The notes under the pieces are model-generated. The model saw nothing but the letters and a program-made list of their open reading frames with translations. It did not search any database and was not told where the DNA came from. This document shows positions 7,122 to 21,432 of a stretch of DNA of 64,000 bases, in pieces. Position 1 is the stretch's first letter. The number at the start of each line of letters is the position of its first letter. This DNA is from Tsukamurella asaccharolytica. GTDB taxonomy: Bacteria; Actinomycetota; Actinomycetes; Mycobacteriales; Mycobacteriaceae. Both the position numbers and the translations under genes were made by a program. Location: NCBI RefSeq assembly GCF_007858435.1, contig NZ_VIGW01000006.1, positions 124,001 through 188,000 on the forward strand, in the 5' to 3' direction.

Positions 7122-7180
7122 GACTCTCCGATTCCGTCCGTTTCGGACTCGATGTCCATCAAGGACAGAATCCGAGAGTC
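7122..7180. repeat. Dispersed palindrome family A, copy A1
   Basis: Arms GACTCTCCGATTCCGTCC and GGACAGAATCCGAGAGTC pair over 18 positions with two mismatches; the centre is less well paired than in copy A2. It lies between a plus-strand stop and the next plus-strand start, so it may act as a terminator, but its sequence recurs at 11,076, 12,170 and 21,372. Confidence 0.8.
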
Positions 7181-7263
7181 ACGCAGCCGGTACGGTCTGC
7201 CTTCCCGCGGTCCGGACGGGCAACTCAGTTGCCACCTGCCGCGTGGCAGTATTTCTCGCGTGG

Positions 7264-8223
7264 ATGCGCTCGATCGGCCAGTCAATGGATGAGGCGGTGC
7301 GCGACGGGCGGGTCGCGCAGCGCATCGTCGACGGTGCCCTCCCCGGCGCGACCGTCCTGCCGTTGCTGGTCAGCGAGAACGCCACCTTCCGCGTGCACGG
7401 CGGGCCACGGCCGGCCGTGCTGCGGCTGCACCGCCCGGGGTATCAGGACGACGCGGCGATCGCCTCGGAGCTGGCGTGGATCGCCGCCCTGCGCCGCGAC
7501 ACCGCGGTGCCCGTGGTGGAGCCACTGAGCGGGGTGCTCGTCGACCCGCCGACGGGACGCCGCGCGGTGCTGTTCGCGGAACTCCCCGGCGGCCACGTGC
7601 CCGACGAGGCGCTCGACGTCGCGCACTTCGCCGCGCTCGGCGAGATCGCCGCGGTCTTCCACGAGCACGCCGAGACCTGGCGGCGGCCCGCCGATTTCAC
7701 GCGCTTCACCTGGGGCGTGGCGGAGACGATCGGACCGCGGCCCCGCTGGGGATCCTGGCGCGACGGGCTCGCGGTGGGGGAGGCGCACCGTCGGGCGATC
7801 GCGCCGGCGGCCGACCGCGCGGCGAGCCGGATCGACGGCTTCGGTCGGACCGCCGACCGGTTCGGCCTGATCCACGGCGACCTGCGGGCCGCCAACCTCA
7901 TCACGCCGGGCGCGGGCTTCACCGTGATCGACTTCGACGACTCCGGCTTCGGCTGGCACCTCTTCGAGTTCGCGGCCGCCACCTCGTTCGTCGAGACCGA
8001 CCCGCGGCTGCCGGAGTGGGCGGCGGCGTGGGCGGCGGCGTACCGGCACCGTCGGGCGCTGCCCGCCGCGCACGCCGCGCTCCTGCCCGACTTCGTGCTG
8101 CTCCGGCGCCTGCAGTTGCTCGGATGGCTCGGCACCCACGGGCACGCGCTGGAGGCGGATCCCGGATTCGCCGACGGCACCGTCGAAGTCGCGCAGGCGT
8201 ATCTGGCCGGGCGGCTACTGTGA
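7264..8223 (+). CDS. Aminoglycoside phosphotransferase/choline kinase-fold phosphotransferase
   Basis: A roughly 319-residue APH-fold kinase. [22 protein letters not shown] corresponds to the nucleotide-binding lobe with its Lys/Arg position, [12 protein letters not shown] is the catalytic loop (His-Gly-Asp, Asn) and [19 protein letters not shown] carries the metal-binding Asp. HGD with IDFDD is typical of homoserine-kinase-like or choline-kinase-like members rather than of resistance enzymes specifically. The start is uncertain: ATG 7264 or 7285, or GTG 7243; no clear ribosome binding site is seen. The stop is 4 bases before the dialkylglycine decarboxylase gene, so they form one operon and probably one pathway. 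The substrate is unknown. Confidence 0.75.
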
Positions 8224-8227
8224 GCGC

Positions 8228-9514
8228 GTGAGCTTCTCGGAATCGGTCGCCGCGCACGTCGTGCGCTACGGCGGCACCTTCGCGCCCCTGCCCATCGACC
8301 GCGCCGCGGGCACGTACGTCTACAGCGGCGACCGCCGCTGGCTCGACTTCACCTCCGGTCAGATGAGCGCCATTCTGGGGCACAGTCATCCGGCGATCGT
8401 GGAGACCGTGCAGCGCGAGATCGCGACCCTCGACCACCTCTTCTCGGGGATGCTCTCGCCGCAGGTGGTGACGCTGGCCGAGCGGCTCGCGGCCACCGTG
8501 CCGGACCCGCTGAGCCACGTCCTGCAGCTGACCACCGGCGCCGAGTCCAACGAGGCCGCGCTGCGGATGGCCAAGCTGTACACCGGCAAGCACGAGATCG
8601 TCAGCTTCTCGAAGTCCTGGCACGGTATGACGGCCGGCGCCGCGGCGGCGACCTACTCGTCGGGGCGCAAGGGCTACGGGCCCACCGCCCCCGGGAACTT
8701 CGCCCTACCCACGCCGAACGCCTACCGCTCGCGGTTCGTCTCCCCGGACGGGAAGTACGACTGGGAGTCGGAGCTGGACTTCGGCTTCGAGCTCATCGAC
8801 GCGCAGTCCACGGGCTCCCTGGCCGCCTGCCTGGTGGAACCGATCCTCAGCTCCGGCGGGATCATCGACGTGCCCGTCGGGTACCTCGCCGCGCTCAAGC
8901 GCAAGTGCGAGGAGCGGGGGATGCTGCTCATCGTCGACGAGGCTCAGACCGGCCTGTGGCGCACCGGCGCCGCGTACGCCTTCGAACGCGACGGGATCGT
9001 GCCCGACATCCTCACCTTGAGCAAGACGCTCGGCGCGGGCCTGCCCATCGCGGCAGTCGTGACGACGGCGGAGATCGAGCGCGTCTGCCACGAGCGGGGC
9101 TTCCTGTTCTTCACCACGCACGTCAGCGATCCGATGGTGGCCGCCGTCGCGACCACGGTGCTCGACGTGCTCGGCGACGGGGTCGCCGGCGGCGTCGCCC
9201 GGGACGTCGCGGCCCGCGGGGCGCGGCTGCGCGCCGGGCTCGACGAGCTGGCCGCCCGGCACGAGGCGATCGGCGACGTGCGCGGCCGCGGCCTCATGCA
9301 GGGCATCGAGCTGGTCCGCGACCGCGAGTCCAAGGAGCCGGCCACCGAGCTGGGGCTCGCGGTGACGCAGCGCTGCTACGACCGCGGCCTGCACATGAAC
9401 GTGGTGCAACTGCCCGGGATGGGCTCGATCTTCCGCATCGCCCCGCCCCTCACCGCCACGGACGCCGAGATCGACGAGGGCCTCGAGATCCTCGACGGGG
9501 CGCTGCGCGGGTAG
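8228..9514 (+). CDS. dgdA: 2,2-dialkylglycine decarboxylase-like class III aminotransferase
   Basis: A 428-residue PLP enzyme. It follows Burkholderia cepacia 2,2-dialkylglycine decarboxylase closely from memory: VRYGGTF near the N-terminus, [62 protein letters not shown] [43 protein letters not shown] (PLP Lys), FFTTHVSDP and [17 protein letters not shown]. The archetype decarboxylates 2,2-dialkylglycines (for example 2-aminoisobutyrate) and transaminates pyruvate. A GTG start is used. Coupling to a phosphotransferase gene is unusual for this enzyme and leaves the true substrate open. Confidence 0.85.
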
Positions 9515-9629
9515 TTCCGGAGTCCGCGCGAAGAATTTTCGGCGGAACCGATGAGTTTCGGCGACGAGGCCCGTCTAACCATGTGACGGTGTTCGACAGA
9601 CGGATGCCGCAGACCCCAGGAGCAACGCC

Positions 9630-20021: not shown

Positions 20022-20063
20022 GGGGTCCACTGGACCACCGGGAACGCCGGTTCTCGCGCCGCG

Positions 20064-20101
20064 TTAACGCCCCCGATGCGGGTCTTAACGCCTTCTTAGC
20101 G
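20064..20101. promoter_or_regulatory. Tandem TTAACGCC repeats upstream of kdpF, candidate KdpE sites
   Basis: TTAACGCC occurs at 20064 and again at 20085 (21 bp apart, two helical turns), and a degenerate TTAGCG follows 11 bp later at 20096. Same-face direct repeats are the usual operator of OmpR-class regulators. The region separates kdpF from the divergent MFS gene, so binding could affect both. Confidence 0.5.
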
Positions 20102-20113
20102 GATGATGATTCG

Positions 20114-21322
20114 GTGACTGAATCACCCGCCGCGGGCGCCGCGCAGACGAGCCGGCGGGTGCCGCCGGAGGTCTGGGTCCTCGTGGCCGCGAGCTTCGTG
20201 ATCGCCCTCGGCTACGGCGTCGTCGCACCCGCGCTGCCCGCCTTCGCCCGCACCTTCGACGTGGGCATCGGCGCCGCCTCCGCGGTCGTCAGCGCCTTCG
20301 CCATCATGCGGCTCGCCTTCGCGCCGGCGACGGGGCCCTTGGTGCGGGCCTTCGGCGAGCGCTGGATCTACATGGCGGGGCTCCTCATCGTCGCGGCCTC
20401 GACGCTCGCGGTGGCCTTCGCGCAGAGCTACTGGCAGCTCATGCTCTTCCGCGGGCTGGGCGGCGTCGGCTCGGTGATGTTCACCGTCTCCGCCATGGGC
20501 CTGATGATCCGCATCGCGCCCGCCGAGATCCGCGGGCGGGTGAGCGGCGTCTACTCGTCGAGCTTCGTGCTCGGCAGCATCTGCGGGCCGCTGCTGGGCG
20601 GGGCGCTCGTCGGCTTCGGGCTGCGGGTGCCCTTCGTCGTCTACGCCCTCGCGCTGGTCGTCGCCACGCTCGTCGTCGGGATCGCACTGCGCGGGAGCTC
20701 CCTCGCGGGCCGGCAGGAGGCCTCCACCGAACCGGGCACGACGGTGCGCGAGGCCCTCGCGGACTCCGCCTACCGGGCCGCGCTGCTGACCGCGGTCGTC
20801 TTCGGCTGGGTGTACTCGATGCGGGTCTCGCTGCTGCCGCTGTTCTTCGCCGCCGTGCTCGACCAGCCGGCCGCGATCGCCGGCTACGCGCTGGCCGCGT
20901 ACGCCGCGGGCGACGTGCTGGCCATGTTCCCCGCGGGCCGCGCCTCCGACCGCTACGGCCGCAGGCCCTTCATCGTGACCGGCATGCTCGTCATCGCGGT
21001 GAGTACGGCGGCGCTGGGCTTCACCGACTCGGTGCTCGTCGCGTTCCTGGTCACCGCGGTCGCCGGCATCGGGACGGGACTCGTCGCGCCGACGATGCAG
21101 GCGTCCCTCGCCGACGTGCTGCAGGGCAAGGGCCGCAGCGGCGGCGCGCTCTCGGCGTACCAGATGGCGCAGGACGCGGGCACCATCTCCGGTCCGCTGC
21201 TGGCCGGGGCCATCGCCCAGTACTTCGGCTTCACCTGGGCCTTCGCGGTCACCGCGGCGCTGTGCGTCCTCGCCGCCGTCGCCTGGATGCTGGCCCGGGA
21301 GACCCGCGCCGCGACCGTCTGA
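20114..21322 (+). CDS. MFS transporter (multidrug efflux-like)
   Basis: A 402-residue, 12-helix major facilitator. The first helix is VWVLVAASFVIALGYGVVAPALPAFARTF; the loop 2-3 region reads ATGPLVRAFGERWIYMAGLL, motif C-like GLMIRIAPAEIRGRVSGVYSS-type sequence follows in helix 4-5 (as in drug:H+ antiporters), and the second half repeats with FPAGRASDRYGRRPF. GTG 20114 is chosen as the start because the upstream frame crosses the kdpF promoter. Export of drugs or metabolites is likely; the substrate is unknown. A palindrome (A4) follows the stop. Confidence 0.8.
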   Translation: MTESPAAGAAQTSRRVPPEVWVLVAASFVIALGYGVVAPALPAFARTFDVGIGAASAVVSAFAIMRLAFAPATGPLVRAFGERWIYMAGLLIVAASTLAVAFAQSYWQLMLFRGLGGVGSVMFTVSAMGLMIRIAPAEIRGRVSGVYSSSFVLGSICGPLLGGALVGFGLRVPFVVYALALVVATLVVGIALRGSSLAGRQEASTEPGTTVREALADSAYRAALLTAVVFGWVYSMRVSLLPLFFAAVLDQPAAIAGYALAAYAAGDVLAMFPAGRASDRYGRRPFIVTGMLVIAVSTAALGFTDSVLVAFLVTAVAGIGTGLVAPTMQASLADVLQGKGRSGGALSAYQMAQDAGTISGPLLAGAIAQYFGFTWAFAVTAALCVLAAVAWMLARETRAATV

Positions 21323-21371
21323 GTGCCCGGCCCTGCCGCGGTCGTGCGGTCGGCCATGTGCTCCGCAACGA

Positions 21372-21432
21372 CGACTCTCGGTTTCCGTCCGCCTCGGACA
21401 GGCTGTCCGAACCGGACGGAAACCGAGAGTCG
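21372..21432. repeat. Dispersed palindrome family A, copy A4
   Basis: Arms 21372-21401 and 21403-21432 pair over 30 positions with two mismatches. Relative to copy A2 the left arm changes CCGATTCTG to CGGTTTCCG and the right arm changes correspondingly, so pairing is preserved. It lies between convergent MFS and protein mannosyltransferase genes and could serve as a two-way terminator. Confidence 0.85.

What the first reader, a model, noticed from the sequence alone, without database searches (positions are those of the whole stretch)
7122..21432. Family A: dispersed ~60-bp palindromes with co-varying arms
Four sites (7122-7180, 11076-11142, half-copy 12170-12195, 21372-21432) share the core GACTCTCCGATTCTGTCC and its complement. 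A2 has perfect 32-bp arms with a 3-base loop. Between A2 and A4 the left arm changes CCGATTCTG to CGGTTTCCG and the right arm changes to match, so base pairing is kept while sequence drifts. This implies selection on a hairpin (DNA or RNA). The full copies lie after stop codons but far exceed normal terminator length and carry shared sequence, as in REP/BIME-type families. All four fall within a 14-kb part of the window.
Basis: seen in the sequence. Interest (0 to 1): 0.75.

Follow-up and report, generated by a model that had tools for sequence, protein, structure and literature searches.

The report
Scattered palindromes linked to TetR-like gene
A genus of soil and opportunistic bacteria carries a family of about 60-base mirror-image DNA sites between its genes; they look like landing sites for a protein rather than RNA hairpins, and the likely protein is encoded beside one of them.

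Summary
The palindromes are real and belong to a genome-wide family: in this Tsukamurella genome 12 copies of 59 bp, 4 long copies whose arms bracket 99-315 bp, and the half copy. The family occurs in other Tsukamurella; among 85 genomes outside the genus I saw two stray arms. No RAYT (Y1) transposase was found in 16 of 16 Tsukamurella genomes.

"Selected hairpin with co-varying arms" fails on 64 short copies: arm-to-arm pairing (1388 of 1792 cells) equals arms shuffled within genomes (1385.4, sd 9.9). Each 28-bp arm is kept as sequence and holds a mirror-symmetric 15-bp dyad, TGTCCG-NNN-CGGACA, the format of an operator for a dimeric protein.

The half copy lies inside the 3' end of an ORF (11284-12279) with a predicted TetR fold; A2 lies just upstream. 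This layout recurs in 9 of 9 genomes with the ORF; they hold 3-12 short copies, the 7 others 0-2. A paralog has a different palindrome family at its 5' end.

Best reading: a REPIN-like population of paired protein-binding sites, probably bound by the TetR-like protein, enriched between convergent genes. Binding, mobility and function are inferred.

The parts
7122..7180 (.). A1: 59-bp two-armed element (28 + 3 + 28), imperfect arms, between two + strand genes
11080..11138 (.). A2: 59-bp element, perfect arms (extended to 32 bp, 11076-11142), between the sigma-70-like gene and the TetR-like ORF
   Evidence: same position relative to the ORF in 9 of 9 genomes that have it
12170..12197 (-). A3: single arm, inverted relative to A2's left arm, inside the 3' coding end of the TetR-like ORF
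   Evidence: synonymous differences in its 8 codons pS 0.07 vs 0.29 elsewhere (10 pairs), but the following codons are as low
21373..21431 (.). A4: 59-bp element between convergent MFS-transporter and PMT-type mannosyltransferase genes
11284..12279 (+). 331-aa ORF, predicted TetR-family fold; candidate protein that recognises the arms
11265..11283 (+). leader GTGGACTTCGGGGGGAGCC before the ATG, similar in relatives, with a purine-rich presumed ribosome-binding site
   Evidence: RBS role inferred
11244..11250 (+). GTAGCGT, a -10-like (TANNNT) site at a similar place in relatives; assignment by eye
   Evidence: inference

Best explanation
The palindromes are paired, inverted copies of a 28-bp recognition arm, GACTCTCGGATTC + TGTCCG-NNN-CGGACA, in a Tsukamurella-wide dispersed family. 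SHOWN: in short copies the arms are constrained as sequence, not through mutual pairing; each holds a 15-bp mirror-symmetric dyad; arms come as convergent pairs, exactly 3 bp apart or bracketing longer DNA; they sit between genes, above all between convergent genes; an ORF with a predicted TetR fold is bracketed by a full copy and an inverted arm, and genomes with the ORF hold more copies. INFERRED: dimers of this TetR-like protein bind the arms, a full element giving two adjacent arms back to back, and the protein-DNA complex is what selection keeps. At gene ends such a complex most plausibly acts as a two-way barrier to read-through transcription, and possibly also as a chromosome-organising site. 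The population arose and persists in REPIN-like fashion, together with its partner gene.
Confidence: 0.45

Rival explanations
1. Non-autonomous mobile element: the arms are terminal inverted repeats of a transposon-like unit (59-bp minimal form, long forms, gene-carrying forms) moved by a transposase that is now lost or unrecognised; the TetR-like gene is cargo or the element's regulator.
For: Arm pairs hold very different interiors: 3 bp, 75-492 bp, or genes. In G005 (T. tyrosinosolvens-like) the distal right arm of the A4 locus is separated from the left arm by about 2.6 kb; the T. tyrosinosolvens record with identical arms annotates an MFS and a sigma-70 gene there. The flank beyond the distal arm matches G003's A4 flank 98/114, the flank after the proximal arm 68/123. 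Deletions abut elements: G000 lacks about 2.3 kb that 8 of 8 other genomes compared have beside one element; G006 lacks A2-ORF-A3 and its homology with G003 resumes within 4 bp of A3's outer end.
Against: No target-site duplication seen by eye at the copies read; the DNA between arms that I read holds no transposase-like gene; copies at orthologous sites stay near consensus while flanks decay, unlike dead transposon copies.
Confidence: 0.27
2. RNA-level hairpins: terminators or 3'-end stabilisers (BIME-like) at gene ends, with sequence similarity due to spread of one hairpin.
For: Enriched at convergent gene ends. One intergenic slot holds different palindromes in different species, as if any strong palindrome served. 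Small pairing excess in the 19 long copies.
Against: No compensatory change between arms in 64 short copies; centre bases paired at chance level; no U-tract noticed after the copies I read (by eye); arms kept in long forms where they are 75-492 bp apart; 6 of 44 sites lie between divergent genes; no Rfam family.
Confidence: 0.15
3. Chromosome-landmark sites like SlmA-SBS or RefZ-RBM: the TetR-like protein on dispersed sites acts on cell division or nucleoid organisation.
For: Same kind of parts: TetR-fold protein plus a modest number of dispersed, positionally conserved, near-palindromic sites (PMC6657595 and PMC4117426, passages). In G015, 13 loci (single arms and weak ones included) all lie within 0.67 of the origin-to-terminus half-chromosome (by hand from positions and dnaA).
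Against: In G004 one of 6 loci lies at 0.93 of that distance, so no clean terminus exclusion; the gene was not found in 7 of 16 species; many sites were seen in one species only (39 of 56 strict clusters).
Confidence: 0.08

Closest known systems
REPIN / REP-RAYT systems (Pseudomonas, E. coli)
   Same: Short inverted pairs of a conserved repeat, extragenic, dispersed; a single-copy, vertically inherited gene associated with the repeats, with more copies in genomes that have the gene (PMC3116915, PMC8049555, passages).
   Different: No Y1 transposase found in 16 of 16 genomes; partner ORF has a predicted TetR fold; only about 17 loci counted in this genome; no compensatory arm changes in short copies, whereas REPINs are described as showing them.
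SlmA-SBS and RefZ-RBM
   Same: TetR-fold protein with dispersed chromosomal sites; RBMs are nearly palindromic and their positions relative to oriC are conserved in Bacillus.
   Different: Here sites are 59-bp double arms, vary between species, prefer convergent gene gaps and show no clear terminus exclusion; no division link known.
TetR-family operators (TetR 15 bp, QacR 28 bp)
   Same: 15-bp dyad within a 28-bp unit, inverted-repeat symmetry, gene next to its presumed site (operator sizes from PMC4150764, passages).
   Different: Sites are genome-wide, mostly at gene ends, and doubled back to back; not shown to control a promoter.
Stoperators of cluster A mycobacteriophages
   Same: Dispersed intergenic repressor sites proposed to halt transcription elongation (PMC9283540, passages).
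   Different: Those are 13-bp asymmetric phage sites, bound by a monomer and oriented with transcription; these are symmetric, chromosomal and 59 bp.
MITEs / IS-derived minimal elements
   Same: Terminal inverted arms with variable interior, dispersed non-coding copies (definition recalled).
   Different: No parental IS or target duplication found here; arms conserved at orthologous sites.

Membership tests
REPIN / REP-RAYT | Inverted pair of a conserved extragenic repeat forming a defined unit | tested here: met
   64 of 64 short copies (two arms >=16 bits, <=6 bp apart) are exactly 59 bp; no arms in - then + order within 800 bp in the 81 loci; one such adjacency, between the tandem copies of G009
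REPIN / REP-RAYT | Associated RAYT (Y1/HUH tyrosine transposase) gene | tested here: not met
   PF01797: 0 of 16 genus genomes at E <= 0.001; control genomes ring in 5 of 14
REPIN / REP-RAYT | Copy number tracks presence of the associated gene | tested here: met
   for the TetR-like ORF, not a RAYT: 3-12 vs 0-2 short copies; not corrected for ancestry
REPIN / REP-RAYT | Compensatory changes keep the hairpin | tested here: not met
   short copies 1388 vs 1385.4 +/- 9.9 paired cells; long copies small excess, 57 of 2000 shuffles
TetR family | TetR fold (N-terminal HTH plus helical C-terminal domain) | tested here: met
TetR family | Match to a TetR sequence family | tested here: not met
   no significant Pfam or NCBIfam family for the ORF; paralogs touch mycofact_TetR at E 0.01, far below cut-off
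TetR family | Binds a palindromic operator as dimer(s) | not testable with these tools
   mirror-symmetric 15-bp dyad is consistent
Intrinsic terminator / RNA hairpin family | Pairing maintained by covariation | tested here: not met
   short copies
Intrinsic terminator / RNA hairpin family | Known RNA family | tested here: not met
   Rfam at gathering thresholds finds only two tRNAs in the window
MITE / transposon end | Target-site duplication or clean empty site | tested here: inconclusive
   flanks too diverged; G006 right junction within 4 bp of the arm end, left junction not alignable
SlmA-SBS-like system | Sites depleted from the terminus region | tested here: inconclusive
   G015 none beyond 0.67 of 13, G004 one of 6 at 0.93

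The most novel reading that the evidence does not exclude
A REPIN-like population of repeats whose partner is not a transposase but a TetR-fold DNA-binding protein, with at least two paralogous protein-palindrome pairs in one genus, and with arms that can also bracket gene cassettes. This would be a second, non-transposase route to long-lived gene-plus-dispersed-repeat systems in bacteria.
Probability: 0.3. Interest if true: 0.82.

Novelty: new variant of a known kind. Interest (0 to 1): 0.6.

Why it matters
If the TetR-like protein binds the arms, these sites would show how a small family of dispersed protein-binding palindromes arises, stays at fixed gene-end positions while its surroundings decay, and dwindles with its partner gene. 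It would separate "REPIN-like persistence" from "has a RAYT transposase" and would give a testable protein-dependent barrier at convergent gene ends in actinobacteria. It is also a caution: matching arms in two or three copies can look like covariation, and a within-genome shuffle of arms is a simple test for it.

Tried and rejected
RAYT partner: none in 16 genomes. Rfam: nothing at the elements. SlmA-like terminus exclusion: not clean. Stand-alone 15-bp operators in this genome: none, 8 of 8 lie in family arms; other genomes have some outside, and the end of the list (part of G012, G011, G013 and G005) was cut. Spread outside the genus: single stray arms in G020 and G071 only (101 genomes, 16 of them of the genus, <=1 mismatch); ORF profile 3 of 397 genomes of the order, all Tsukamurella (only the top 5 candidates scored per genome). 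Phages: ORF 0. Viral contigs: exact pattern 0. Plasmid set: ORF only in T. tyrosinosolvens NCTC13231 record NZ_LR134465, same locus, annotated 'hypothetical protein'; the A2 element itself 0. Sequence match of the profile to PDB chains: no TetR protein. Clean empty site at A4: intergenic DNA too diverged.

A first ortholog-pair table (130 pairs) mixed non-orthologous sites (A1 with A2, for example); it was replaced by the strict set of 45 pairs. My earlier hand count of sites (14 of 25) was replaced by 21 of 44 (one further site of unknown configuration left out; strict clustering splits some true orthologs, A2 for instance into four clusters). Single-linkage sites merge unrelated loci and are not used for counts. 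One search contained one wrongly placed row and was replaced. Covariance model R1 had a shifted structure and was replaced by R2. In pairing arms, my script joined only + then - arms within 800 bp; that no other order occurs was checked by reading the listing. Copies with an arm under 16 bits, such as the model hits G010 2761477 and G015 786301, are not in the 64.

Literature: ten full-text searches. I saw listings and the starts of abstracts; passages only of PMC3116915, PMC8049555, PMC6657595, PMC4117426, PMC9283540, PMC4150764 and PMC4132739. None of the titles and abstract starts listed described this family; that is no proof that it is unpublished.
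Full report
WHAT IS THERE. The four sites are as described. A 28-bp arm matrix, built from 12 copies of this genome that include A1, A2 and A4, scores 39-44 bits at all seven arms of the window (A3 was not in the training set) and nothing else in 64 kb reaches 10 bits. Genome-wide, the core pattern has 50 hits at <=3 mismatches against 2 for the reversed control. Read out, this gives 12 full 59-bp copies, 4 long forms (155-371 bp) and the half copy A3. 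Most long forms of the genus contain arrays of GGCGCCGCGCGGGGGAC-type short repeats, and some a nested second palindrome. The genome belongs to Tsukamurella: exact-pattern hits in named genomes are T. spumae, T. pseudospumae and Tsukamurella sp. M9C only, and contigs of G001, G003 and G012, congeners of this genome, have the lengths of those records. At <=1 mismatch, 14 of 101 genomes have an arm: this one, 11 of its 15 congeners in the search, and single stray arms in two genomes outside the genus.

ANATOMY. I fetched 81 loci of the genus (two of them for the paralog) plus the orthologous A-region in 15 further genomes. All 64 short copies are 28 + 3 + 28 bp; with 19 long ones there are 83 two-armed copies in convergent order. 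An arm is GACTCTCGGATTC followed by TGTCCG-NNN-CGGACA. Over 187 arms the information content of the last 15 columns is mirror-symmetric (r 0.97; permutation p 0.00015), the next best window having r 0.51. Changes at paired dyad positions within an arm are not correlated.

HAIRPIN OR PROTEIN SITE? If the stem were selected, a left arm should match its own right arm better than another copy's right arm. In 64 short copies from 11 genomes it does not: 1388 of 1792 Watson-Crick cells against 1385.4 (sd 9.9) when right arms are dealt out among copies of the same genome; with G-U, 1491 against 1488.1 (sd 7.8). An excess of about 20 cells, 5% of the 404 unpaired, would have been two standard deviations. 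In 19 long copies there is a small excess (441 of 532 against 430.7, sd 5.3; 57 of 2000 shuffles), which points the other way. On the 12 copies of this genome alone the tool's controls were mixed: shuffles at least as high were 8 of 500 for paired cells, 13 for the covariation score, 22 for cells with both sides changed, 244 for further pair types and 355 for pairs with both sides changed. I let the larger short set decide: the arms fit one consensus each, and the stem follows from that.

POSITION AND AGE. Genes were called with a simple script of mine. Of the 67 two-armed copies in the 81 loci, 65 have a clear context: 39 between convergent genes, 17 tandem, 9 divergent. Background gaps of >=60 bp in 34 stretches without elements: 48 convergent of 357 (stretches partly orthologous to each other). 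Counted per strict site cluster: 21 of 44 convergent, p 4e-8. In one search the only arm overlapping a called gene is A3 (in G013); outside that set, the annotated MFS gene of T. tyrosinosolvens runs over A4 there. With both flanks required to match, 17 of 56 site clusters are shared by two or more genomes; in 45 orthologous short pairs the element is 82% identical and its 40-bp flanks 62% (unrelated 54%), the element being higher in 44 of 45. So many copies are old and held to the family consensus while their surroundings have drifted.

CASSETTE-LIKE BEHAVIOUR. At the A4 locus of G005 about 2.6 kb lies between the element and a further right arm; the T. tyrosinosolvens record with identical arms annotates an MFS and a sigma-70 gene behind A4 (the distal arm lies beyond the part of that record I fetched). 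The flank beyond the distal arm matches the A4 flank of G003 (98/114), the flank after the proximal arm does not (68/123). The layout, element-genes-inverted arm, is that of A2-ORF-A3. G004 keeps a 178-bp, 75% identical piece of this DNA behind A4. Deletions abut elements in G000 (about 2.3 kb present in the 8 other genomes compared), and in G012 and G013 (the sigma-70-like gene next to A2 is missing). One gap, between tandem genes in G001, holds family A in G000, G001 and G003 but other palindromes in G005, G014 and G015 (found by script) and, by eye, in G002, G004, G006 and G010. This keeps a mobile-element reading alive and suggests that such gaps accept different palindromes.

VERDICT. The mechanism it proposed, selection on a hairpin, is not supported by the short copies. 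The best account is a REPIN-like population of paired protein-recognition arms, most likely bound by the TetR-like protein, with a barrier role at gene ends as the most plausible function. Binding, barrier and mobility are inferences; sequence constraint, dyad symmetry, layout, distribution and the predicted TetR-like fold are results.

Noticed in passing
window 35739-35831 and 55172-55264: A second dispersed repeat (about 85-93 bp, ends CTCCCTAGCGGGAC / GTCCCGCTAGGGAG, inner TCCATGGA) in opposite orientations; 9 long matches plus 3 short self-overlapping ones in the genome.
   Followed up: partly
L133:3987-5047, L134:3825-4979: TetR-fold paralog with its own palindrome family CTATGAAATCGTGACCGCCAGTGACA at its 5' end.
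   Followed up: partly
L235:10063-10136, L254:15552-15628, L233:6636-6687, L260:7080-7133: Further 50-77 bp palindromes in the genus (CTCACGATGTSGGGTTCT, CGTGACGAAACCGGGCTG, TTCGAAGSGTTCTGCGA); the last also nests inside some long family-A forms.
   Followed up: partly
window (8 places, e.g. 44630-44641): GGCACCGTCGGA is over-represented (8 at <=1 mismatch, 1.62 expected); similar words stand beside palindromes in some relatives (by eye).
   Followed up: no
L098, L107 (G001, G015) near A2 and A4: In G001 and G015 many short copies read GACACTC instead of GACTCTC, often on both arms, and a further motif around TGTCACCGATGTC lies beside A2 or A4 (by eye).
   Followed up: no
L246:6602-6756 (G000:C63:106101-106255): Long element at the edge of a roughly 2.3-kb deletion relative to 8 other genomes.
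   Followed up: partly
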